Made by a program: the position numbers and the translations under genes. Of a stretch of DNA of 64,000 nucleotides, positions 5,479 to 24,275 are shown one piece after another (within the stretch, counting starts at the first letter, position 1; each line of letters begins with the position of its first letter). This stretch comes from Arcobacter venerupis (GTDB lineage Bacteria > Campylobacterota > Campylobacteria > Campylobacterales > Arcobacteraceae), in the NCBI RefSeq assembly GCF_013201665.1, contig NZ_CP053840.1, positions 372,001 through 436,000 of the forward strand, in the 5' to 3' direction. The notes beneath the pieces are model-generated. The model was not told the origin of the DNA and ran no database searches. It worked only from the letters and a program-made list of their open reading frames with translations.

Positions 5479-6654
5479 TTATTTAAATAGTGCTTCTAAA
5501 GATGCAGTATCAGTTATTTTCTCTTCAGTAATAGTTTTTTCATTACTGTTTGTAGAACTTGATAATGAAGCAATTTCAATCAATTCAATATCATATTTTG
5601 TAAGCATTGAAGCTAATCTAATATTTAAACCAGCTTTTCCAATAGCTTTTGATTTTTGATCACTTGGAATTGTAACAATTGCTTTTCCTTTTTCACCATA
5701 AGAAGGTGCTTTCTCAATTTTTACACTAGATACAAGTGCTGGTGATAATGCTCTTGAAATAAACATTTCTGGAATTGTAGAGAATTCAACACAATCAATA
5801 TTTTCTCCATGAAGTTGTTTTGAAACTGAACCAATTCTAACACCTTTTACTCCAACAACTGAACCAATTGGGTCTATTTGAGGATCAATAGATGAAAGTG
5901 CAATTTTAGATCTAGTTCCAGGAATTCTAGCACTTGCTTCAATAGTTACTTTTTTATCTTTTAGTTCAGGAACTTCAAGGATTAAAAGATTTTCTAAGAA
6001 TTTTGGAGAAGTTCTTGAAATATCAATTAATAAACCATTTGTTTTATCAATATTTACGCCTTTTACAATAGCTTTAACAACATCACCAACTTTAAAAGTT
6101 TCACCTTTTATTCTACTTTTTCTCTGTAAAATACCTTTTACTTCACCTATTTCAATAAATGTATTCTCTTGTCTATCAATTCTTGTAACAGTTCCTGCTA
6201 TAGTTTTCCCGATTTTGTCTTTGTATTTACTAACAAGATTTTCTTCAATAAATCTTTGAAGTCTGTATTCAAAATTATTATGTAATATAGTAGCTGCATT
6301 TCTACCCATATTTTCGAATTCTAAATCGTAGTTCATAAAATCGCCAATTTCTAAATCTGGGTCAATTTCTTTTGCTTCATCAAGAGTAATATAATTTTCA
6401 TAATTAAGTGCTTCACCATATTTATTAACTGCATTTGCATGTAGTCTTTCGTCATCTTCTGATACAACTTCAATTTTTTGAAATAGTTCAAGTTTTTTAT
6501 TCGCTCTATCAATATTTGCATCAAAAGTAAGTGTTTCATCAACCATTTTTTGAGCTGTTTTAATCAAAGCTTCTTTTAGTGCATTTTCAACATCATCAAT
6601 TTTGAGACCTTTTTCATATGCAATTGAATCTAAAATATCTATTATTTTATCCAT
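5479..6654 (-). CDS. nusA: Transcription termination/antitermination protein NusA
   Basis: RNA polymerase-associated factor that modulates pausing, termination and antitermination. Domains in order are the NusA N-terminal domain (residues 1-125), an S1 RNA-binding domain (GKTIAGTVTRIDRQ onward, ~130-195) and two KH domains (GVKGVRIGSVSKQLHGENID, then KAIGKAGLNIRLASML). The roughly 391-residue protein ends soon after KH2 and lacks the acidic repeats of gamma-proteobacteria, as usual outside that class. The chosen ATG at 6654 follows an AAAGG ribosome-binding site; an upstream in-frame ATG at 6702 has no such site. Confidence 0.94.
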   Translation of the reverse strand: MDKIIDILDSIAYEKGLKIDDVENALKEALIKTAQKMVDETLTFDANIDRANKKLELFQKIEVVSEDDERLHANAVNKYGEALNYENYITLDEAKEIDPDLEIGDFMNYDLEFENMGRNAATILHNNFEYRLQRFIEENLVSKYKDKIGKTIAGTVTRIDRQENTFIEIGEVKGILQRKSRIKGETFKVGDVVKAIVKGVNIDKTNGLLIDISRTSPKFLENLLILEVPELKDKKVTIEASARIPGTRSKIALSSIDPQIDPIGSVVGVKGVRIGSVSKQLHGENIDCVEFSTIPEMFISRALSPALVSSVKIEKAPSYGEKGKAIVTIPSDQKSKAIGKAGLNIRLASMLTKYDIELIEIASLSSSTNSNEKTITEEKITDTASLEALFK

Positions 6655-6804
6655 TAATAACCTTTTATTTGTTGACATTGAAATGATTGTTTTGATTTCC
6701 AATGTAGTATAGGTTATTAGTATAGCTAAAAAAGCCTTTTATAGAAATTAAAGTAATTTTGGGATAAAATATATCACTAATTAAAAAAGAAAAAGGCTTA
6801 ATAA

Positions 6805-7047
6805 ATGGAATTATTATTTGCAAGAAATGAGTTAAATGAAAAACCAAAAAAAGTGCAACTTGAAAAAATCAAAGAAGATTTAAATAAAGACGGACAAAAA
6901 ATCTTTTATTTTGACAGAGATAACTCTCACAAAGATATGATGGCGTTAGTAGATGCTTTAGAAGCAGATGGAAATAATGTTTACTTCAGAGAAGTAAAAT
7001 ACGGTTTAGCAGATGATGAATATATGTATGAGGTTCATGCACTTTAA
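6805..7047 (+). CDS. HP0268-like conserved Campylobacterota protein
   Basis: An 80-residue protein resembling Helicobacter pylori HP0268 along its length: an MELLFARNE-type start, IFYFDRDNSHKDMMALVDAL in the middle and YMYEVHAL at the end. HP0268 has been reported as a small nuclease, but that activity should not be assumed here. A GAAAAAGG ribosome-binding site precedes the ATG. It is divergent from nusA and 26 bases before miaB, so it may be co-transcribed with miaB. Confidence 0.8.
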   Translation: MELLFARNELNEKPKKVQLEKIKEDLNKDGQKIFYFDRDNSHKDMMALVDALEADGNNVYFREVKYGLADDEYMYEVHAL

Positions 7048-7073
7048 TATTTAGGTATTTAAGTAAAATAATT

Positions 7074-8384
7074 ATGAGTTCAAATAAAAAACTATTTATA
7101 CAAACGTTAGGCTGTCAGATGAATGACACAGACAGCCAACATATTGCTGCTGAGTTAAAAAAACACAAAGATTATATTCAAACAGATATTATGGAAGAAG
7201 CTGATTTAATTATAATCAATACTTGTTCTGTAAGAGAAAAACCTGTTTCGAAACTTTTTTCTGAAATTGGGCAATTTAACAAAAAGAAAAAAGCAGGTGC
7301 AAAAATCGGTGTTGCTGGTTGTACGGCATCACATTTAGGTGAAGATATTATAAAAAGAGCACCTTATGTAGATTTTGTTCTTGGTGCTAGAAATATCTCA
7401 AAAATAAAAGATATAGTTGATATAAAAGGCTCAGTAGAAATTTCAATTGATAATGATGAATCAACTTATGACTTCTCAACTGCAAAAACAAATCAATATA
7501 GAGCTAGTGTTAATATTTCTGTTGGATGTGATAAAAAATGTACTTATTGTATAGTTCCAAGTACAAGAGGTGAAGAAATTTCTATTCCTCCTGAAATGAT
7601 AGTTGAACAGGTTCGAAAATCAGTTGAACAAGGTGCAGTAGAAGTTACATTGTTAGGTCAAAATGTTAATTCTTATGGAAGAAATTTTTCAGATGGAAGA
7701 GGTAAATATTCATTTACAAATCTTTTACAAGATGTTTCAAAAATAGAAGGATTAGAGCGAATTAGATTTACTTCTCCACATCCTTTGCATATGGATGATG
7801 ATTTTATTGAAGAGTTTGCTAAAAATGATAAAATTTCAAAATGTATTCATATGCCTTTACAAAGTGGTTCTACAAATATTTTAAGAGCTATGAAAAGAGG
7901 CTATACTAAAGATTGGTTCTTAAATAGAGCAAATAAACTACGAACCCTTGTACCAAATCTCAGAATTACAACTGATATTATTGTTGCGTTCCCAGGTGAA
8001 ACACAAGAAGATTTTGAAGATACATTGGATGTAGTTAATCAAGTTAAATTTGATCAAATTTTCAACTTTAAATACTCTCCAAGACCAGGAACTGAAGCTC
8101 TAAATATGGCAGATATTGAGATTGCTGATGAAATTGGAAGTGCTAGGTTAATTGAATTAATTGAACTTCACAAAAGACATTTAGAAGAGACAATGCCTAC
8201 TTATGTTGGCGAAACTTTAAATGTATTAGTGGAATCATTGAAACCAAATGGTGAAGTTTGTGGTTTTACAGATAATTTTTTACAAGTATTTACAAAAGGA
8301 AGTGACGAACTTTTAGGTAAATTTGTGAATGTTAAGATTACTGATGCTTCACGAACATCTTTAAAAGGTGAAGTTGTACTTTAA
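7074..8384 (+). CDS. miaB: tRNA (N6-isopentenyl adenosine(37)-C2)-methylthiotransferase MiaB
   Basis: Radical-SAM enzyme that adds the 2-methylthio group to i6A37 of tRNAs reading UNN codons. The 436 residues carry the UPF0004 domain with cysteines C14, C51 and C83 for the auxiliary Fe-S cluster. The radical-SAM CxxxCxxC follows at C152, C156 and C159 (GCDKKCTYC), with a C-terminal TRAM domain (LNVLVESLKPNGEVCGFT onward). The stop TAA overlaps the next start (TAATG), coupling it to the acyltransferase gene. Confidence 0.95.
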   Translation: MSSNKKLFIQTLGCQMNDTDSQHIAAELKKHKDYIQTDIMEEADLIIINTCSVREKPVSKLFSEIGQFNKKKKAGAKIGVAGCTASHLGEDIIKRAPYVDFVLGARNISKIKDIVDIKGSVEISIDNDESTYDFSTAKTNQYRASVNISVGCDKKCTYCIVPSTRGEEISIPPEMIVEQVRKSVEQGAVEVTLLGQNVNSYGRNFSDGRGKYSFTNLLQDVSKIEGLERIRFTSPHPLHMDDDFIEEFAKNDKISKCIHMPLQSGSTNILRAMKRGYTKDWFLNRANKLRTLVPNLRITTDIIVAFPGETQEDFEDTLDVVNQVKFDQIFNFKYSPRPGTEALNMADIEIADEIGSARLIELIELHKRHLEETMPTYVGETLNVLVESLKPNGEVCGFTDNFLQVFTKGSDELLGKFVNVKITDASRTSLKGEVVL

Positions 8385-8998
8385 TGAAAAATTATTTTAA
8401 ATTTAAAGTATTACCTTACTTATTATATTTATTAATAAATTTTTTATATTTTACAAATAAAAAAGTTTTTCATCATCCCAAATTAAAAGATGATGAAGCT
8501 TTTATTTTTGTAGCTTGGCATGGAGATCTAGTTTCACAACCCTTAAATTATTTCAATAAAAGACCAAATGGTACAGTAAAAACAATGATTAGTCAGAGTA
8601 AAGATGGAGAAATAATAACGAAAGTTTACTCTTTATTTGGAATAGGTGCGATTAGAGGATCTTCTTCTAAAGGTGCAACTAAAGCATTAATTAGTACAAT
8701 TAAAGAGATTAAATCAGGTTCTGACGTTGCAATATCTCCAGATGGACCAAGAGGACCACGACATAGTTTTGCTGGTGGTGTAATAAGTATTGCACAAAAA
8801 AGTGGCGCTAAAATTGTTATTTTAAGTTCTAAACCGACTAAATATTGGCAATTTAACTCATGGGATAGATTTGTATTACCAAAACCATTTGGAAGAGTTG
8901 ATTTTTATATGTCTGAACCTTTAGATGTTACTAATCTAGAGTTTGAAGAAGCAAGGGATTTTGTCAGAAATAAAATGTTACTGAATATTGTAAGTTAA
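8384..8998 (+). CDS. DUF374-family acyltransferase (lysophospholipid acyltransferase superfamily)
   Basis: A 204-residue protein with an N-terminal hydrophobic segment (KVLPYLLYLLINFLYF). The DUF374 pattern follows: a WHGDLVSQP motif (in place of the HxxxxD of PlsC-like acyltransferases), SQSKDGEIITKVYSLFGI, and ISPDGPRGPRHSF near residues 124-136. DUF374 enzymes are assigned to lipid A or lipid acylation at the inner membrane, but the substrate cannot be read from sequence. It overlaps the miaB stop by one base and is translationally coupled. Confidence 0.85.
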   Translation: MKNYFKFKVLPYLLYLLINFLYFTNKKVFHHPKLKDDEAFIFVAWHGDLVSQPLNYFNKRPNGTVKTMISQSKDGEIITKVYSLFGIGAIRGSSSKGATKALISTIKEIKSGSDVAISPDGPRGPRHSFAGGVISIAQKSGAKIVILSSKPTKYWQFNSWDRFVLPKPFGRVDFYMSEPLDVTNLEFEEARDFVRNKMLLNIVS

Positions 8999-9016
8999 AA
9001 GTTAGATAGGAAATGT

Positions 9017-10612
9017 ATGTTTACTAAAGAGTCTTTGTATATTAATGCTGTGAAATATGATACTCAACTAAAACTTGATTATAAAAAATTAAGTAATGAA
9101 GAAATTATTAATACTACCAATTCAGTTTTTTTAGTCGATAGTGATTTATTACCTTTAAATATTGCTGAAAAATTAAATGCTTCTCAAACTGAAATTGATA
9201 ATAGTTATATTTCTACACTTTTAATTAATGATACAACTAGACTTGTTCCTAAAGCATTATCTTCAAAATTAAAAGATTGTGAAATTGCAAAGTTCAATAA
9301 TGAATACGATATTGCAGTTCTTAAAACAACCCTTTTTGAAACAAAAAACTATTTTATAAAAACAGGAATAGATTATATTTATTCTGCCTTTCATTTAATA
9401 AATCTTCATATTGATAAAAATATATCTAGAAGTGAATTTATAGTATTTTTATTTAATAGCAAAGCTTTTATTGTTATTTTAGATGCGGCTGGCGTAATAG
9501 TTCATAATACTATTTTAGACTTACCAACTTTTGAGTCAGTTAAAAAAACACATTTTTATGAAGATGATATAGATGGACAAAAACTTTTTGATGAAATTTA
9601 TTATTTAGAGTTAAATGAAATTATTCATAACACATTAAATAACTTTTATGAAAAAAAGAATAATACATTTGTAGAAAAAGTAACATTACTTTATGTATCA
9701 AAGCAATTAAATCAAGAGCAAATAGAGCAATTATGTGAAGATTTACTTCTAAAAGTTGATTATCATCCTATAAATATTGATGAAGAGATTTTTGAATTAT
9801 CAAGAGATAAACATCTAAAGAAAAGTTTTATTAAACCTAGAAAAAAGAAAAAGAAGAGAAATTATACTAATTTTTATATATTTTTATTTGTTGTTTTAAT
9901 TGCTTTTATTTCTTATGAAGTTTATCTAAGAGTTGATTTTAATGCTTTATTTAATACTAAAGAGACAATATCACAAAAAGTAGAAGAAACTCAAAATACT
10001 AATGAATCTTCAAATTTACCAGATCACATAAATTTAAATGACAAAATAGAGCAAAAAGTAAGATCAGTATTTGAATCAATTACAGATGATGTAGTTGTAA
10101 ATGAATTTAAATTTGATAAGAATATACTAGAGATTAAAGGTATTTTCTTAAAGGAAGATACTTTTGCAAGTTCTTTAAAACCCAATTTAGATAAGTTATA
10201 TAAAGATATAGTTTATTCAACTGTATCTAAAGATAAAAGTGTAAAACTTGATGGAGTTGTACTTGCAAAAGAGAGTATAGACTTAGATAAAACTTTTAAG
10301 ACATTTACTAAAGAGTATTTAACTGATGAGTTTATGCCACTAGATAGAGTAACAGAACAATTAAAAATATTATTACCATTAGATTCAATAATTAAATACA
10401 ATACAACAAGTTCAAATACTAACATTACAAGATTTATATATACTGTAAATATTTTAGTTAAAGAACCAAATGAGTTTTTTGATATGTTAGATGTACTAAA
10501 TAATGAATTATATTCAATTTATATCTCTTATCCTTTGAGTATGCTAAAAACTGATGCAGGTATTGAAATAGAGTTTATTTTAGTATTTAATCAGAAGAAT
10601 GAAGTGAAATAA
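9017..10612 (+). CDS. Unrecognised single-span membrane protein
   Basis: 531 residues with no confident family match. Visible layout: a ~270-residue N-terminal domain without a signal peptide; a very basic patch KPRKKKKKR at residues 273-281; one transmembrane helix at about 285-301; and a ~230-residue C-terminal region rich in Asp, Lys and Ser/Thr. By the positive-inside rule the N-terminus is cytoplasmic and the C-terminus periplasmic. This topology resembles GspL/PilM-PilN scaffolds, but no ATPase motif is evident. It lies 18 bases after the acyltransferase gene. Confidence 0.75.
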   Translation: MFTKESLYINAVKYDTQLKLDYKKLSNEEIINTTNSVFLVDSDLLPLNIAEKLNASQTEIDNSYISTLLINDTTRLVPKALSSKLKDCEIAKFNNEYDIAVLKTTLFETKNYFIKTGIDYIYSAFHLINLHIDKNISRSEFIVFLFNSKAFIVILDAAGVIVHNTILDLPTFESVKKTHFYEDDIDGQKLFDEIYYLELNEIIHNTLNNFYEKKNNTFVEKVTLLYVSKQLNQEQIEQLCEDLLLKVDYHPINIDEEIFELSRDKHLKKSFIKPRKKKKKRNYTNFYIFLFVVLIAFISYEVYLRVDFNALFNTKETISQKVEETQNTNESSNLPDHINLNDKIEQKVRSVFESITDDVVVNEFKFDKNILEIKGIFLKEDTFASSLKPNLDKLYKDIVYSTVSKDKSVKLDGVVLAKESIDLDKTFKTFTKEYLTDEFMPLDRVTEQLKILLPLDSIIKYNTTSSNTNITRFIYTVNILVKEPNEFFDMLDVLNNELYSIYISYPLSMLKTDAGIEIEFILVFNQKNEVK

Positions 10613-10620
10613 AACTTGTT

Positions 10621-11682
10621 TTACCAAGTTTTTATTTCATTATAAATAGAGTCTCTCTCAACTGGTATAAAACCAGAATTTTTAATTAAATCTACAAATT
10701 CTAATTGTGCTATTCCATTTGCACTAGAAGCTCCCGCCGCACTTTGAATTGATTCTTTTTCAATTGTTCCATCCACATCATTTGCTCCAAACTCTTGAGC
10801 TATTAGAGCTAATTTTACGGTTGAAGTAGCCCAATAAGCTTTTATATTTGGAATATTATCAAGTAAAATTCTAGCTATAGTGTAAGTTTTTAGTATTTCT
10901 TGACCAGTTAATGGCTCTTTTACTTTTAAATAATTATTTTCAGTTTGATATACAAGAGGAATAAAGGCATTAAAACCACCTGTAAGGTCTTGCAAAGCTC
11001 TTAATCTTAACATATGGTCAATTCTATGGTTTCTATCTTCTATATGTCCAAAGAGCATTGTTGCATTACTTTTTTTACCTTTTTCATGCCAAAGTCTATG
11101 AATTTCTAACCATTGCTCTGATGTAACTTTTCCACCACAAATTCTTTTTCTAACTTTTTCATCAAAAATTTCTGCACCACCACCTGGCATTGAATCAATT
11201 CCATGTTCAACCATCATATCAATTATCTCTTGATATGAAAGATTATATTCAGTGCTTAAAAAGTGAATTTCAGCAGCTGTTAATGCTTTTACATGAATAT
11301 TTGGGAAGTTCTCTTTTATTTTTTTAAATACATCCATATACCATTGTAATCCAGTATGAGGATTATGAGCAGAAACTATATGAACTTCTTTTATATTATT
11401 TTTTGAAGAATTTTTTACAACTTCAAGAATCTCTTCATGGCTCATTGTATATTGGTGTGGATTTTTTCTACTTGCACTATAGGCACAAAATTGACAGACA
11501 TCTTTGCAAATATTTGTTGGATTTATATGTCTATTTATATTAAAGTAAGTCTTTTTACCATGTTTTTCTTCTCTAATTTTATTGGCAAATGATGCAAGTG
11601 TGAATAAATCTAAATCATATAATTTTATTGCATCTTCATACTCTAAACGTTCATTTCTTTCTAATTTTTCTATAATATTCAT
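10621..11682 (-). CDS. mqnE: Aminofutalosine synthase MqnE (radical SAM)
   Basis: Catalyses an early step of the futalosine route to menaquinone, joining SAM-derived adenosyl to 3-[(1-carboxyvinyl)oxy]benzoate. The 353 residues hold the radical-SAM motif CKDVCQFC (C59, C63, C66). GGGAEIFDEKVRKRICGGK and TMLFGHIEDRNHRIDHMLRL match MqnE better than the paralogue MqnC, which normally has ILSDRVR and FGHVET-type segments. Campylobacterota use this pathway. The gene starts 8 bases after the stop of a small membrane protein gene, in an operon-like run. Confidence 0.88.
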   Translation of the reverse strand: MNIIEKLERNERLEYEDAIKLYDLDLFTLASFANKIREEKHGKKTYFNINRHINPTNICKDVCQFCAYSASRKNPHQYTMSHEEILEVVKNSSKNNIKEVHIVSAHNPHTGLQWYMDVFKKIKENFPNIHVKALTAAEIHFLSTEYNLSYQEIIDMMVEHGIDSMPGGGAEIFDEKVRKRICGGKVTSEQWLEIHRLWHEKGKKSNATMLFGHIEDRNHRIDHMLRLRALQDLTGGFNAFIPLVYQTENNYLKVKEPLTGQEILKTYTIARILLDNIPNIKAYWATSTVKLALIAQEFGANDVDGTIEKESIQSAAGASSANGIAQLEFVDLIKNSGFIPVERDSIYNEIKTW

Positions 11683-17913: not shown

Positions 17914-17920
17914 ATAAAAA

Positions 17921-17948
17921 GAAGAAATAAATTTAGATTTATTTCTTC
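17921..17948 (+). terminator. Putative terminator after pyk
   Basis: A perfect 12-bp inverted repeat (17921-17932 with 17937-17948, loop TTAG) starts 7 bases after the pyk stop and is followed by a mixed T-rich tail. Confidence 0.6.
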
Positions 17949-18213
17949 TTCCTACATTTTATGATTTCATCAATTTAATTATCTGTTTTAACTTTATTAA
18001 TTGTAGTTATTTTAAATTCTTTTGATAAGCACATAAAATACCCTAAATTATGTGCTTAAAAAACTATAGTGAAAATGAACTACATCAAATTATTGGCTTT
18101 AAAAATTTATAGTAACCTGTTTTAGTTGCGAAAATTAGATAGAACTTTTAAGTATTTTTTTATTAAATCATTATTTTTGTATAATAAATGAAATTACAAT
18201 AAAAAGAATTTTA
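17949..18213. other. Non-coding leader before the Avs4-like gene
   Basis: About 265 bases without a gene. It contains a perfect 11-bp inverted repeat, TAAGCACATAA (18026-18036) with TTATGTGCTTA (18048-18058), and an 11-base loop. TATAAT at 18180-18185 is a likely -10 box for the gene starting at 18214. No flanking target-site duplication or tRNA was seen. Confidence 0.55.
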
Positions 18214-21200
18214 ATGCAAAATATAAATTGGGATAAGTTACAACCATATTCAGGTGATACTAAAAAAAGTTTTGAGGAATTATGCTATCAAATAGTATCA
18301 GAAAAATTTAAAGATGATATTTTAAATGGTGCAATTTTAACTTCTATTGATGATAGTGGTGGAGGAGATGGAGTTGAATTTTATCTAACTTATCAAAATG
18401 GTGATGTTTATGGTTGGCAAGCTAAATATTTCTGTCGGTTAAATGAAGGTGGAAGAAAAGAACAAATTAAAAAATCTCTACAAACTACATATGATAAACA
18501 TCCTAATATAAAAAAATGGTTTCTTTGTAATAAATGTAACTTTACACCTGATGAAAAAAAATGGTTTGACGATGATTTAGCAAACTCAACTAAAAATGGG
18601 AAAACTGTTTTACCAACTAACCATAATGTAGAGCTTATACATTGGGGAGAAAGTGAATTACTTAATTACTTAAAAGATTATTCAAATATTCATAGGTTTT
18701 TCTTTTCTGAAAAATTCCTAACACAAGAATGGTTTGAGAATAGATATAAAATTGATATTGATAAAACACAAATAAAAACTAAATATATATCTGAAATTCA
18801 TATCCAAACAGATATTGATATGACAATTTGTAAAATGCTAGGTGGAAATAGACTTATAGAAGTTCTTGAAAGAACAATGGAGCAACACCAAGTATTAATG
18901 TATGCAGAACAATATAAAGAGTCTTATTTAAGACTATTTTCTGAAGATGTAAATGATGAGTATAAAAATATACAAACTTTTTTTAGAAAGTTTTTAGAAG
19001 AAAAAGAAAGCATAATTGTAATTGCTATTAATAAGTTAGATGAAATAAAAGAAATAATATCAATTAAAAATGAACAAAAGCTAAAAGCTAAAATAAAAGA
19101 ATTTGAAGAATACATTAGTGCTTTAAGCGAATTTTATAAAAAATATGATGATTTATCAGAATCAAACTTATGTGAACCTATAAAACATCTTAGGATAGAA
19201 AAAGAAAATGGTTCAGATTTAGATAAAAAAGAAAAAGATAAAATTGAAACTGAAAATAGAAAAAGAAAAAAAGTTAGGGATATTCTTTTTTCTCCTTTAT
19301 ATGATTTAAGTGAATATGCTATTTCTTCATTAGAAGGAATTTTTAGAGTATTTGATTTATTAGAGCAAAATGAAGTTCATATTTCAGGTAAAGCAGGTAT
19401 GGGAAAAACTCATGTCTCTTTTAATATTTTTAAAAATCAAATTGTAAATCAAAAAGAGCCTGCTATTTTTATTTTAGCTAAAGAAATATATACAGACCAA
19501 AGTTTAGAAAATCAATTAAAAGATAACTTTTCTATGCCAGTTGATTGGACATTTGATGATTTTTTAGGTGCTTTAGAAATTAGTGCAAGAGTATATAAAG
19601 TAAAAATACCAATTATTATAGATGGATTAAATGAATCTACACATTGGAATTCTGTTTGGAAAAATGGTTTAGAAAAATTTATTTTAAAATTAAAACAATA
19701 TCCCCATATAGTTTTAATAACAACATATCGTAACTCTTATGAAGACCAATTATTTCCAAATAAATATTTTAACTATGATAATAGATGGAGATTAAAAGAG
19801 TTTATTCATGGTTTTGAGGGGTTAAATTGGAAAGCTATAGAAACTTATTTTAAATTTTATAAAATAAAATTAGAAAATCGCTCAAATGCAATAGGTTATT
19901 TCGAACATCCATTACATTTAAAGATTTTTTGTGAAACAAAAAATCCAAGTCGTAATAAAGTTGTTAAAGTATCATTTCAAAATGAAGATTTATTTGATGT
20001 TTTTGAAGAATATATACAAATAAGTAATGAAAATATAACAACTTTATTAAAAGAACTTGACCCTAAATATAATAATGACTTTACGCAAAAAAAATTGTTA
20101 AAGCTTTCTAAATATTTTTGGGAACATAATACTAGAGGAATGCCCCGCTCTGAAAAACTGTTTAGTGATGATGAGTTAAGAATTTTTGAAGGAGAAAACC
20201 TACTTATTTATAGAGATTGGAATATTAATAATGATAAAGAAGAAATACAATTTACCTACGATTTATTAGGTGGTTATCTTATCTCTAAATATCTTATTCA
20301 ATCCTATGAAGAATATTATCCAATTATAAAAGTACCCTCAAATAATTGGATAGTTAAAGTTGCAAAAGTATTTTCTGATGAATATATACCAGAAAGAGCC
20401 ACAGATTTATGTTATGAGAGCTTTAAAAAAACTAGTATTTTAATAAATACTGTAATGAGTAATAAAGTTGCACTCGAAAAATTTATTACTTCAAAAGAAT
20501 TTAGAAAAAGATTATTAGAGTTTAAAACAGAGCACCCGTTATATGATGATATTCTCAGAACAATTACTATTTTAATTATTAAAAAATCTACTATTTTTTT
20601 ATTTAATATTTTAGAAAATGAAAGAGCAAGAAAATATTCAATCGAATCTCTTTTTGAAATTAATTCAAAATTTATTAAAGAAAATGAAGAATTAATTAAG
20701 AATTTTTTAGAAAATGAATTCATATCTAATAGTGAACAATTATTAAATTTATCTAAACAAATAGAATTTGACTCTGAACATCCTTTAAATTTTCATTTTT
20801 GGTCTGATTTACTTAAAAAATCATCAATGTTAGAAAGGGATTTATTTTGGAGTGAATATATTAGAAAAAATCATTCTTGGTATAGGGATTCTTATTTTAC
20901 ACAATTTGTTAATAATTTTGAAAAGGCATGTATAGAGCAAAAAGAAATATCTAATAGAGTTCACATAGGTGCTAAAAAAGTTATGTGGGTTTTTACTACA
21001 AATATAAGAAGACTTAGAGATGAAGCAACTAGAGCATTATATTATTATGCAAGGAGATACCCCAAAGAATTTTTAGACTTGTTAAAATATTCAATTGATA
21101 TAAATGATCCTTATGTAGTGGAACGAATGTTAGCTGTAACTTATGGATTAGCAATGGCAAGACAAAATGATTTTGATGATGAAAGCTATAGAAAAGTTTA

Positions 21201-22863
21201 TTTACCTCTATATGGAAGATTTCTTTTTGATAATATGTTTTCAAGTGAAGCGAAATATCCTACAACACATATTTTAGCTAGAGATTATGCAAAAAGAACT
21301 ATAGATATTGCATTAATACATCATTCATCTTTATTTACTAATTCAGAAAAAAAGTTAATTAAATATCCTCTAAAAGATTATTTTCATAAAGAATGGGGAA
21401 CAATACCAAACTACAAAGAATTAAAATATAGATTTGGTACACCTATTCATATGGATTTTGAAAATTATACTATTGGTAGATTGGTAGAGGAAAGAAGTAA
21501 TTATGATAGTGAACATAAAGAATATAAACTCATATTATCTCAAATTTATTGGAGAATGTATAATTTAGGATATTTATTTACAAAATTTGAAAAAATTGAT
21601 AAACAAATTGGGAATGATAGTTGGCGTAATTCAAATAATGAAAGTGCTAGTAAAATAGATAGATATGGCAAAAAATATTCTTGGATTGCATTTTATGAAA
21701 TGGCAGGACATAGAAGTGATTTAGGTTTACTAAAAAAGTGGGGAAATGAAGATGAATTAAGAATCTCAGATACAGATATTGACCCGAGTTTTCCTATTGA
21801 ACTAAGAAAATATAATTTATTTGAAGAAATAAATAAGAATAATTTTTTAGGAGATTTAGGAAAAGAAGCTGTAACATGGTATTCAAATGATAAGGACTTA
21901 GATATTAGTAATTATATTAAATTAAATAGTCATTTAGGAACAAATGAAAAAAATGATTGGTTTCTTTTAAAAGGTTCTATATCTCAAAAGGATAAAGAAG
22001 ACCAAACTAGAGATGTTAATATTGGAATAAATGCTATTTTAGTAGATATAGAAGAATATAAAAAAATCGAAAATTTAACAGACAAGTATCATGATTATAG
22101 TTTTGATTATTTACAAAATATAGAAGACCATTATATATATGATGGAGAAATACATTGGTGTGACTTAATACCTAATGATTATTCAAGAGATTTCCAAATT
22201 TCTTATAATTATCATGAGGTGGAAAGAATAAAAAAAGAATTGAAAATTTTCAATAATGGTAAAAATTTATCAGAAATTGAAAATAATGAACTTGAAAAGA
22301 AAAAGAAGGAATTTTTAGATAAAGCTTGGGATAAAGTTTTTGATGGAGATTTTGATGTTAATATTCCATCTTTATCTAATAATGATGAAATAACGAAAAA
22401 AATAGCAGAAGAAATGGGGTATACAACAGAATATATAGATACTACTTATACACAACAAGATAATGATAATATAGAAATAAATATAGAAACAACTATATTC
22501 AGAAATTCTTGGGAAAGTTATCATAGTGAAATTATTTCAAGCGGAGAAACAATTGTTCCTTCAAAAAATATTTCTAATTATTTTGGACTACATTTAAGAT
22601 CTCAAAGTTCCGATTTATATAATCAAAATGGAGAAATAATATCAACATCTCTAAAATTTGGAGAAAGTTATGATAACAAATCAACATTTACTTATATTAG
22701 GAAAGATTATTTAGAAAGGTACATGGAAGAAAAAAATAAACAATTAATTTGGTTGCAATGGACTGAAAAAAGATATTTCCCAAATGGTGTAAAAAAATTA
22801 ATCTATAGTGGTGAACGTGAAAAAACTGAATATAGAAATTATTATAAAATAATTTATGATTAA
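18214..22863 (+). CDS. Avs4-like STAND NTPase with Mrr-like nuclease domain (antiphage)
   Basis: 1549 residues. Residues 1-160 resemble Mrr/PD-(D/E)xK nucleases, with an SGGGDGVEFYL segment containing D52 followed by GWQAKYF with Q69 and K71 (a QxK site). A linker with charged coiled-coil character follows (~250-350). The STAND/NACHT-type NTPase has Walker A GKAGMGKTH (392-400), Walker B IPIIIDGLNE (465-474) and LITTYR (501-506) as a sensor segment. The remaining ~1000 residues look helical and HEAT/TPR-like (DEATRALYYYARRYP, NDPYVVERMLAVTYGLAMA). Domain order and size match Avs4, which senses phage portal protein and then cleaves DNA. It is a lone gene with no partner. The Avs subtype is inferred. 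Confidence 0.8.
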   Translation: MQNINWDKLQPYSGDTKKSFEELCYQIVSEKFKDDILNGAILTSIDDSGGGDGVEFYLTYQNGDVYGWQAKYFCRLNEGGRKEQIKKSLQTTYDKHPNIKKWFLCNKCNFTPDEKKWFDDDLANSTKNGKTVLPTNHNVELIHWGESELLNYLKDYSNIHRFFFSEKFLTQEWFENRYKIDIDKTQIKTKYISEIHIQTDIDMTICKMLGGNRLIEVLERTMEQHQVLMYAEQYKESYLRLFSEDVNDEYKNIQTFFRKFLEEKESIIVIAINKLDEIKEIISIKNEQKLKAKIKEFEEYISALSEFYKKYDDLSESNLCEPIKHLRIEKENGSDLDKKEKDKIETENRKRKKVRDILFSPLYDLSEYAISSLEGIFRVFDLLEQNEVHISGKAGMGKTHVSFNIFKNQIVNQKEPAIFILAKEIYTDQSLENQLKDNFSMPVDWTFDDFLGALEISARVYKVKIPIIIDGLNESTHWNSVWKNGLEKFILKLKQYPHIVLITTYRNSYEDQLFPNKYFNYDNRWRLKEFIHGFEGLNWKAIETYFKFYKIKLENRSNAIGYFEHPLHLKIFCETKNPSRNKVVKVSFQNEDLFDVFEEYIQISNENITTLLKELDPKYNNDFTQKKLLKLSKYFWEHNTRGMPRSEKLFSDDELRIFEGENLLIYRDWNINNDKEEIQFTYDLLGGYLISKYLIQSYEEYYPIIKVPSNNWIVKVAKVFSDEYIPERATDLCYESFKKTSILINTVMSNKVALEKFITSKEFRKRLLEFKTEHPLYDDILRTITILIIKKSTIFLFNILENERARKYSIESLFEINSKFIKENEELIKNFLENEFISNSEQLLNLSKQIEFDSEHPLNFHFWSDLLKKSSMLERDLFWSEYIRKNHSWYRDSYFTQFVNNFEKACIEQKEISNRVHIGAKKVMWVFTTNIRRLRDEATRALYYYARRYPKEFLDLLKYSIDINDPYVVERMLAVTYGLAMARQNDFDDESYRKVYLPLYGRFLFDNMFSSEAKYPTTHILARDYAKRTIDIALIHHSSLFTNSEKKLIKYPLKDYFHKEWGTIPNYKELKYRFGTPIHMDFENYTIGRLVEERSNYDSEHKEYKLILSQIYWRMYNLGYLFTKFEKIDKQIGNDSWRNSNNESASKIDRYGKKYSWIAFYEMAGHRSDLGLLKKWGNEDELRISDTDIDPSFPIELRKYNLFEEINKNNFLGDLGKEAVTWYSNDKDLDISNYIKLNSHLGTNEKNDWFLLKGSISQKDKEDQTRDVNIGINAILVDIEEYKKIENLTDKYHDYSFDYLQNIEDHYIYDGEIHWCDLIPNDYSRDFQISYNYHEVERIKKELKIFNNGKNLSEIENNELEKKKKEFLDKAWDKVFDGDFDVNIPSLSNNDEITKKIAEEMGYTTEYIDTTYTQQDNDNIEINIETTIFRNSWESYHSEIISSGETIVPSKNISNYFGLHLRSQSSDLYNQNGEIISTSLKFGESYDNKSTFTYIRKDYLERYMEEKNKQLIWLQWTEKRYFPNGVKKLIYSGEREKTEYRNYYKIIYD

Positions 22864-22975
22864 TGACAATAATTTCAGTTTATTTAAGATAGTTGAATTA
22901 CAACTCTAGCCGTTCATCTAAACAACTAACTTTTAATCGCCTAAATATAATCATTTGGCTTAAACTTATAAGAGG

Positions 22976-23059
22976 AAAAAAAGAGCATTTGAAGCAAATG
23001 CAAAATCTATTATAATTTCTGATGAGTTGATAAATACATTAATTAATCTAAAAAAGTAG
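22976..23059 (+). pseudogene. Remnant of a flagellar hook/rod protein C-terminus
   Basis: Reading from 22976, the frame gives KKRAFEANAKSIIISDELIN followed by a few residues ending NLKK and a TAG at 23057-23059. This is the hallmark end of the FlgE/FlgF/FlgG family (QRAFEANAK-type C-terminal domain that packs in the hook or rod core). No start codon or upstream hook sequence remains, and the frame is closed by a stop at 22961-22963. It appears to be the tail of a lost flagellar gene stranded between the Avs4-like gene and the TolC gene. Confidence 0.7.
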
Positions 23060-23071
23060 GTTTTTAATTAT

Positions 23072-23097
23072 TGCAAAACTTCTATTGAAGTTTTGCA
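23072..23097 (-). terminator. Hairpin at the 3' end of the TolC-family gene
   Basis: A perfect 11-bp inverted repeat (23072-23082 with 23087-23097, 4-base loop) overlaps the last codons of the leftward gene. The T-tail on the - strand is weak. Confidence 0.45.
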
Positions 23098-24275
23098 TAC
23101 ATTTCAAGAAGTTCGATTTGTTTATCAACTTCATAGATTTTCAGATCTAAAGATTTGATTTTTTGTGAGTTTTGAAGGGTGTCTAAATCACTTTGGGTTT
23201 TTAATTGGGCTTCTTTCTCTTCATTTATGATTTTTAAAATAGAGGTATAAACTTCTAAATCATCTCTTGTAATTTGTAATCTTTCTTCAATCATTGATAT
23301 TTTTTGAAGTTTACTTTTGAAAAAAGTTTTTTCATCATCTAAGCTATTTTCTAAATTTAATTTTGATTTTAGATAATCAATCCTTTTACTTTGAACATCA
23401 TTAAAAGTTCTTGAATCAAAAGGTACAGTTACACTTAATCCAAAAGTTTGGTCATTCTCTTTTGAGTATTTTGTATTATTATCTGTATCATGGTATTTTG
23501 AATAAGTATAATAAGCATTTACACTTGGAAGATATTTAGCCATTGTCATATATGAATAATTGCCTTTTTTATCCACATCAGCTTCTATTTTTTTTAGATT
23601 TATATTATTTTCTAAAAACTCTTTTTCACTAAATATTGTAAAAGTTGGTAACTCAAAATTTGTATAATCATTTGAAGAGATATTATTAAAATTATTAATT
23701 AATTCTTGTTTTTGATATTTTAAATCAACCAAGTTATTTTTTGTAGTATTCAAAGTTAAAAGGGCATCATCTAAAAATGAAGCATCTAAAAAACCATTTA
23801 GAACTTGCTCTTTTTTTCTATTCACATCTATTTTTGCATTTTCTAAAGTGTATTTTGCTTTTTCAATATTTAAGTTTGCTTTTTCAATATTATAAAGATA
23901 ATTTAATGCTTCTTTTATTAGCTCTTTTTTTTGTTGAGCTAAATCTAAATCAGCATATTTATAACTATTATCCGCATATTTTATAGCTTGATAGATTCCT
24001 CCACTTTGAAAAATAGGCTGATTAATAGATATCATTGACCTTTGAGTTTTATCATCTTCACCCAAATTATTTGTATATTGATAAGTAATTGGATTTATCC
24101 AATCTTTTCTCAGTTTTGAACTATCTTCTTTAATCTGTTCTTGCGATAAATCAAAATTTTTTAATCTTTTTTCTGAAAGTATTTTTTCATCAAAAGTTTC
24201 AGTTTGGGCATATAAATTTGAAAAGATTAAACTACATAAAAGTAGTTTAATCTTGTTTGATTTTATCAAGTGCAT
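23082..24275 (-). CDS. TolC-family outer membrane protein
   Basis: 397 residues with a signal peptide (KIKLLLCSLIFSNLYA, cleaved near residue 23). Long coiled-coil helices typical of outer membrane efflux proteins follow (LDLAQQKKELIKEALNYLYNI, NVNRKKEQVLNGFLD and the C-terminal mirrored repeat). Such proteins form the trimeric exit duct of efflux or type I secretion systems. No membrane-fusion or inner-membrane pump gene is adjacent, so the partner is elsewhere. Its start overlaps the argD 3' end by 29 bases, so it is probably translated from the argD transcript. Confidence 0.85.
   Translation of the reverse strand: MHLIKSNKIKLLLCSLIFSNLYAQTETFDEKILSEKRLKNFDLSQEQIKEDSSKLRKDWINPITYQYTNNLGEDDKTQRSMISINQPIFQSGGIYQAIKYADNSYKYADLDLAQQKKELIKEALNYLYNIEKANLNIEKAKYTLENAKIDVNRKKEQVLNGFLDASFLDDALLTLNTTKNNLVDLKYQKQELINNFNNISSNDYTNFELPTFTIFSEKEFLENNINLKKIEADVDKKGNYSYMTMAKYLPSVNAYYTYSKYHDTDNNTKYSKENDQTFGLSVTVPFDSRTFNDVQSKRIDYLKSKLNLENSLDDEKTFFKSKLQKISMIEERLQITRDDLEVYTSILKIINEEKEAQLKTQSDLDTLQNSQKIKSLDLKIYEVDKQIELLEMYAKLQ

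What the first reader, a model, noticed from the sequence alone, without database searches (positions are those of the whole stretch)
18214..22863. Lone Avs4-type STAND NTPase: likely antiphage sensor with nuclease head
Seen: an Mrr-like nuclease pattern (D52, Q69, K71), Walker A at 392-400, Walker B at 465-474 and a ~1000-residue helical C-terminal region in one 1549-residue ORF with no partner gene. Known: Avs4 has an Mrr-STAND-repeat order and recognises phage portal protein. Inference: this is a divergent Arcobacteraceae Avs4, possibly with a different phage target. Recognition in Campylobacterota is little described, so it may widen the known ligand range.
Basis: partly seen in the sequence, partly recalled or inferred. 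Interest (0 to 1): 0.78.

Follow-up and report, generated by a model that had tools for sequence, protein, structure and literature searches.

The report
Divergent Avs2-like phage-sensing nuclease
This single large bacterial gene most likely encodes a phage alarm protein of the Avs2 kind (not Avs4): it probably feels a phage DNA-packaging protein with its tail and then cuts DNA with its head, and it belongs to a divergent, widely scattered branch that nobody has tested yet.

Summary
The ORF and its motifs are real (18214-22863 +, 1549 aa; Mrr-like nuclease head, STAND/NACHT NTPase, ~950-residue C-terminal region). The Avs4 label is wrong. All six PADLOC hits are Avs2 models (best E=4e-125) and none is Avs4; the only convincing PDB hit is Avs2 (9o4e). 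True Avs4 genes in the same genus score 1,900+ bits on the Avs4 models, while this protein and its genome score nothing. The sensor aligns end to end with canonical Avs2 (hhalign E=1.6e-82) and not with Avs4; by fold its best PDB match is Avs3 bound to terminase. Only the nuclease head is shared with Avs4, which explains the misreading.

It is nevertheless not ordinary Avs2: 283 bits against NCBI's 1000-bit Avs2 cut-off, in a separate family with relatives in Cloacimonadota, Peregrinibacteria, Bacteroidota and Poribacteria. That family has two branches: a 'lone gene' branch (this one) and a sister branch in which every locus with readable upstream DNA (38 of 41) carries an upstream radical-SAM gene next to DUF6375. 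The gene is a 5.1-kb insert between pyk and a tolC-like gene, a variable slot in the genus. Predicted trigger: phage large terminase rather than portal (untested).

The parts
18214..22863 (+). Divergent Avs2-like STAND NTPase with nuclease head, 1549 aa
18214..18711 (+). N-terminal Mrr/PD-(D/E)xK-like nuclease domain, about residues 1-166; predicted catalytic residues E55, Q69, K71
   Evidence: AF2 topology; conservation; profile match to the Avs4 head, residues 1-106
18712..19371 (+). Helical linker, about residues 167-386
   Evidence: AF2 secondary structure; boundaries approximate
19372..20313 (+). STAND/NACHT NTPase core with winged-helix region, about residues 387-700; Walker A 392-399, Walker B 465-474, conserved R506
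   Evidence: NLRC4 and other NLRs are the top structural aligner rows
20314..21918 (+). Helical-repeat part of the C-terminal sensor, about residues 701-1235
   Evidence: AF2; homologous to canonical Avs2
21919..22860 (+). Beta-rich C-terminal part of the sensor, about residues 1236-1549
   Evidence: AF2; aligned with the end of the Avs3 chain
17918..23066 (.). Insert relative to empty pyk/tolC-like sites in relatives (boundaries within roughly 10 bp)

Best explanation
A divergent Avs2-family anti-phage sensor. Inferred mechanism: at rest the C-terminal helical/beta sensor holds the NTPase inactive. During infection the sensor binds a conserved phage packaging protein, most likely the large terminase subunit. 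ATP-loaded NTPase domains then oligomerise, the Mrr-like heads are brought together and cleave phage and host DNA, stopping the infection by killing or arresting the cell. Shown here: domain order, conserved catalytic and NTP-binding residues, end-to-end homology of NTPase and sensor with Avs2, no partner gene, variable insertion site. Inferred from Avs2/Avs3 literature: trigger identity, oligomerisation, DNA cleavage, abortive outcome.
For: Six PADLOC Avs2 models hit, best E=4.2e-125 from residue 2, none Avs4. PDB by sequence: Avs2 9o4e, E=2e-25; by profile E=5e-41 (N-part) and 6e-76 (sensor). Sensor vs canonical Avs2 profile: probability 100, E=1.6e-82 over 759 columns. Sensor model: best Foldseek hits are Avs3-terminase 8dgc (E=1e-8), VIA Z 12.7 over 476 residues against 9.9 for the next row. 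Near-invariant E55/Q69/K71 and invariant G397-K398, D470, E474, R506; AF2 pLDDT 90.6 and 88.7. Third codon positions change most (0.47 vs 0.29 and 0.20) against the Peregrinibacteria relative, so the protein is under constraint. Literature: Avs1-3 sense large terminase and Avs4 portal, a Klebsiella Avs2 binds terminase and Ksap1 (PMC12724215); Avs1-4 nuclease effectors cleave phage and host genomes (PMC12931631).
Against: It fails NCBI's Avs2 equivalog cut-off (283 vs 1000 bits), and full-length identity to canonical Avs2 is only about 21-22%, so the trigger may differ. The Avs2 structure 9o4e never appeared in the Foldseek results, so the fold of the sensor was not compared with Avs2 itself. 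VIA Z 12.7 lies within the range that helical repeats can reach by chance. No experiment known to me shows anti-phage activity for any member of this branch.
Confidence: 0.72

Rival explanations
1. It is a divergent Avs4 that recognises phage portal protein.
For: The nuclease head (1-106) is homologous to the Avs4 head (hhalign probability 95.6, E=1e-8); Foldseek of the first 700 residues ranks Avs4 8dgf first.
Against: No Avs4 model hit in PADLOC or NCBIfam, while true Avs4 genes of the same genus and family score over 1,890 bits. Sensor vs Avs4 profile: probability 0.2. Closest profiles and solved chain by sequence are Avs2.
Confidence: 0.03
2. A separate Avs lineage: this family (lone branch plus radical-SAM/DUF6375 branch) is a sister of Avs2 with its own, different trigger.
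For: Canonical Avs2 falls outside the family with SH-aLRT 99; the family scores 270-410 bits on the NCBI Avs2 model, where canonical Avs2 scores 900-1675; the sister branch has its own operon partners.
Against: Sensor homology to Avs2 spans the whole C-terminal region. The tree has no Avs1/Avs3/Avs4 outgroup, so the root is assumed and nesting inside Avs2 is not excluded.
Confidence: 0.2
3. A STAND protein used for something other than phage defence (for example stress or developmental signalling).
For: The window's neighbours look like housekeeping genes, not a defence island; no direct test exists.
Against: Patchy distribution in distant phyla, variable insertion slot, relatives between HsdM- and HsdS-like genes, clear Avs2 homology with conserved nuclease residues.
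Confidence: 0.05

Closest known systems
Avs2 (AVAST type 2; PADLOC PDLC02161-02166, NCBIfam NF041813, PDB 9o4e)
   Same: Single gene; nuclease head (in many Avs2), STAND NTPase and long C-terminal sensor; sensor homologous end to end.
   Different: About 21-22% identity; 283 bits vs the 1000-bit equivalog cut-off; separate branch in the tree.
Avs4 (AVAST type 4; NF041815, PDLC02169, PDB 8dgf)
   Same: Mrr-like head with an E...QxK motif; STAND NTPase; lone gene.
   Different: No sensor homology, no model hit; real Avs4 genes in the same genus are clearly distinct.
Avs3 (PDB 8dgc, terminase-bound)
   Same: Best fold match of the sensor, including the beta-rich end.
   Different: Only 12% identity and no PADLOC Avs3 hit.
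Radical SAM + DUF6375 + STAND operon branch (e.g. L013 Vibrio plasmid, L077 Picosynechococcus plasmid)
   Same: Nearest sister branch; 23-28% identity over the full length, E=5e-135 for the Picosynechococcus protein.
   Different: Has two conserved upstream genes that the window gene lacks.

Membership tests
Avs2 | Matches Avs2 profile HMMs better than other Avs models | tested here: met
   Six PADLOC Avs2 models, no other Avs; positive control for Avs4 works.
Avs2 | Reaches NCBI's Avs2 equivalog cut-off (1000 bits) | tested here: not met
   283 bits; canonical Avs2 sequences 901-1675 bits. So it is filed as Avs2-like, not as Avs2 in the strict sense.
Avs2 | C-terminal sensor homologous to the Avs2 sensor over its whole length | tested here: met
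   hhalign E=1.6e-82 over 759 columns; 9o4e E=6e-76.
Avs2 | Active STAND NTPase motifs | tested here: met
   G397, K398, D470, E474, R506 conserved.
Avs2 | Activated by phage large terminase subunit; abortive DNA cleavage | not testable with these tools
   Needs experiment; literature for Avs2 in PMC12724215.
Avs4 | Matches the Avs4 models NF041815 / PDLC02169 | tested here: not met
   No hit at E<=1 in PADLOC or NCBIfam; whole genome G000 no Avs4 match.
Avs4 | Avs4-type C-terminal (portal-binding) sensor | tested here: not met
   hhalign probability 0.2. The Avs4 profile was shallow (5 sequences), but the same profile did detect the shared head.
Avs4 | Mrr-like nuclease head | tested here: met
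   the feature is shared with Avs2-type proteins, so it is not diagnostic.
Radical SAM/DUF6375/STAND operon branch | Adjacent radical SAM and DUF6375 genes | tested here: not met
   Absent beside the gene. DUF6375 gave no match in genome G000, though that search had no positive control.

The most novel reading that the evidence does not exclude
The window gene represents a separate, untested Avs lineage, sister to Avs2, with a phage trigger different from terminase and portal, and with a sister branch that has become coupled to a radical-SAM enzyme and DUF6375.
Probability: 0.2. Interest if true: 0.6.

Novelty: new variant of a known kind. Interest (0 to 1): 0.42.

Why it matters
It corrects a family assignment that changes the predicted phage trigger (terminase instead of portal). 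It also defines a divergent Avs2-like family that the strict Avs2 cut-off misses, across many bacterial phyla and one archaeal (Promethearchaeota) contig, and shows a clean split between stand-alone sensors and sensors tied to a radical-SAM/DUF6375 pair, which makes the role of such partners testable.

Tried and rejected
Avs4 assignment: rejected with positive controls. D52 as the catalytic acid: rejected, E55 is the conserved one. Partner gene: none found; DUF6375 not detected in the own genome (no positive control). Single-sequence scans of genome and viral contigs found nothing; profile scans worked. No Avs3a or Avs5 match turned up in the phylum sample, so no outgroup was available for rooting. 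One guessed NCBIfam number was a beta-lactamase-type model and one PADLOC guess was Drt3a. Pfam gave only weak P-loop hits. The radical-SAM proteins match viperin models weakly (55-70 bits PADLOC; 44-54 vs a 180-bit NCBI cut-off) and match other radical-SAM families about as well, so they are not called viperins. The 9o4e Avs2 chain did not appear in the Foldseek or VIA results, so fold comparison with Avs2 itself was not possible. The original Avs paper (10.1126/science.abm4096) is not in the library.

Full report
OBSERVATION. The ORF at 18214-22863 (+) is intact, 1549 aa, with an ATG start. No ORF of 60 aa or more lies between pyk (ends 17913) and this gene, or between this gene and the opposing tolC-like gene (23082-24275). 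The Walker A (392-399) and Walker B (465-474) motifs are present. G397, K398, D470, E474 and R506 do not vary in 87 aligned homologues, and N473 varies only in five radical-SAM-branch members. AlphaFold2 on residues 1-700 with 63 sequences gives pLDDT 90.6, pTM 0.89. The first ~110 residues have the alpha-beta-beta-beta-alpha-beta order of PD-(D/E)xK nucleases: helix 20-31, strands 41-44, 56-59, 65-71, helix 81-95, strand 99-106. Residues 600-1549 fold with pLDDT 88.7, pTM 0.85; they are helical to about 1235 and then beta-rich, so the 'helical 1000 residues' is only partly right.

FAMILY. PADLOC lists six families and all are Avs2; the best, PDLC02164, has E=4e-125 and starts at residue 2. 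NCBIfam lists Avs2 at 283 bits, below its 1000-bit cut-off. The only convincing PDB hit is Avs2 9o4e; profiles of the N-terminal and sensor halves give 9o4e at 5e-41 and 6e-76. To be sure that Avs4 would have been seen, Avs4 (NF041815) was searched in 298 genomes of the phylum. Four genomes, two of the same genus and one of the same family among them, carry true Avs4 above the 1500-bit cut-off. Two of these proteins, scanned against PADLOC, hit only Avs4 (1910 and 1712 bits), and one hits Avs4 8dgf in the PDB. The window genome has no match to that model.

FOLD OF THE SENSOR. Foldseek's only hits below E=0.001 are two chains of Avs3 bound to phage terminase (8dgc). VIA-align gives Z 12.7 over 476 residues running to the last residue, against 9.9 for the next row. 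For helical repeats such a Z is suggestive, not proof. The N-terminal model matches NLRC4 and other NLRs (Z up to 18.6), with Avs4 and Avs5 at 12.6 and 12.5. This is shared STAND architecture and says little about the subtype.

RELATIVES. A profile scan of 85,000 genomes found 206 relatives, of which 80 loci were read. The nearest are a Cloacimonadota MAG (58% identity in its best segment; the reading frame there is broken into three ORFs) and a Peregrinibacteria MAG (54%). Next come Flavobacteriaceae (34-39%), Poribacteria and others. A tree of the NTPase and most of the sensor (84 rows), rooted by assumption on canonical Avs2, shows (i) canonical Avs2 apart (SH-aLRT 99), (ii) the window gene in a branch of 31 rows (94) without conserved partners, and (iii) a branch of 41 rows (100). 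In branch (iii) 38 loci have a radical-SAM gene, almost always with a DUF6375 gene, directly upstream. The three exceptions (L079, L084, L107) are contig edges, and L084 still shows its DUF6375 gene. In four Poribacteria loci a lone-branch gene lies beside type I modification/specificity (HsdM/HsdS-like) genes (identified by inspection of the sequences). Against the Peregrinibacteria relative, third codon positions differ most (0.47 vs 0.29 and 0.20), as expected under purifying selection. Members of this family are already picked up as 'avs2' by defence annotation tools: Tenacibaculum larymnensis LAR25, whose L047 gene is in the tree, is reported to carry avs2A (PMC10013915).

LOCATION. In six related genomes pyk is followed almost directly by the terminator of the tolC-like gene. 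In the window 5.1 kb (about 17918-23066) stands in that place; in other relatives different genes fill it: histidine kinase/response regulator, a P-type ATPase-like gene, a sensor-like protein, flagellin (names by inspection). No terminal repeats that would mark a transposon were found. One genus member holds a short relic of a related C-terminal end elsewhere (31 residues, 84% identical), so such genes have come and gone in the genus.

MECHANISM. From Avs2 and Avs3 work (PMC12724215; PMC12931631): Avs1-3 sense the large terminase, Avs4 senses portal, the NTPase oligomerises with ATP, and nuclease heads cut phage and host DNA. The window protein has the parts for this route. The trigger is inferred by family and fold only. 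Because identity to canonical Avs2 is about 21-22%, a different trigger remains possible; a Klebsiella Avs2 already has a second one (Ksap1).

VERDICT. Real, very likely a defence sensor, misassigned subtype. It is a new variant: an Avs2-like protein in a divergent family. The more surprising fact lies beside it, in the sister branch with the radical-SAM/DUF6375 pair.

LIMITS. Root and sister/nested status relative to Avs2 are unresolved. I found no functional data for this branch.

Noticed in passing
L013:1695-7132, L077 about 5641-11263, L012:1821-7378, L015:2378-7741, L106:680-6140 and about 36 more loci: A three-gene operon, radical SAM + DUF6375 + Avs2-like STAND nuclease, on plasmids, chromosomes and one viral contig in many phyla. 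The radical SAM protein is weakly viperin-like; no paper in the library mentions DUF6375. It looks like an undescribed variant of Avs defence.
   Followed up: partly
window 17914-23070: The pyk to tolC-like interval is a variable slot in the genus: nearly empty in six genomes, filled by different cargo in at least seven others.
   Followed up: yes
window 22978-23059: Relic of a flagellar hook/rod-type C-terminal end (RAFEANAKSIIISDELINTLINLKK), also found downstream of pyk in a relative (L132:315-386).
   Followed up: partly
L021:8957-9046 (minus): Short relic of the C-terminal end of a related STAND gene (31 residues, 84% identical) in another genome of the genus, near other accessory genes.
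   Followed up: partly
L030, L036, L039, L043: In Poribacteria the lone-branch STAND gene lies beside type I modification/specificity (HsdM/HsdS-like) genes, resembling the Avs2 next to hsdM/hsdS reported in Staphylococcus aureus (PMC12829572).
   Followed up: partly
L109, L110, L111, L112: True Avs4 genes occur in the same genus and family as the window genome; good material for testing portal recognition in this group.
   Followed up: no
window 9017-10612: A 531-aa ORF in the most AT-rich kilobase (22% GC) with no Pfam match at E<=1e-5.
   Followed up: no
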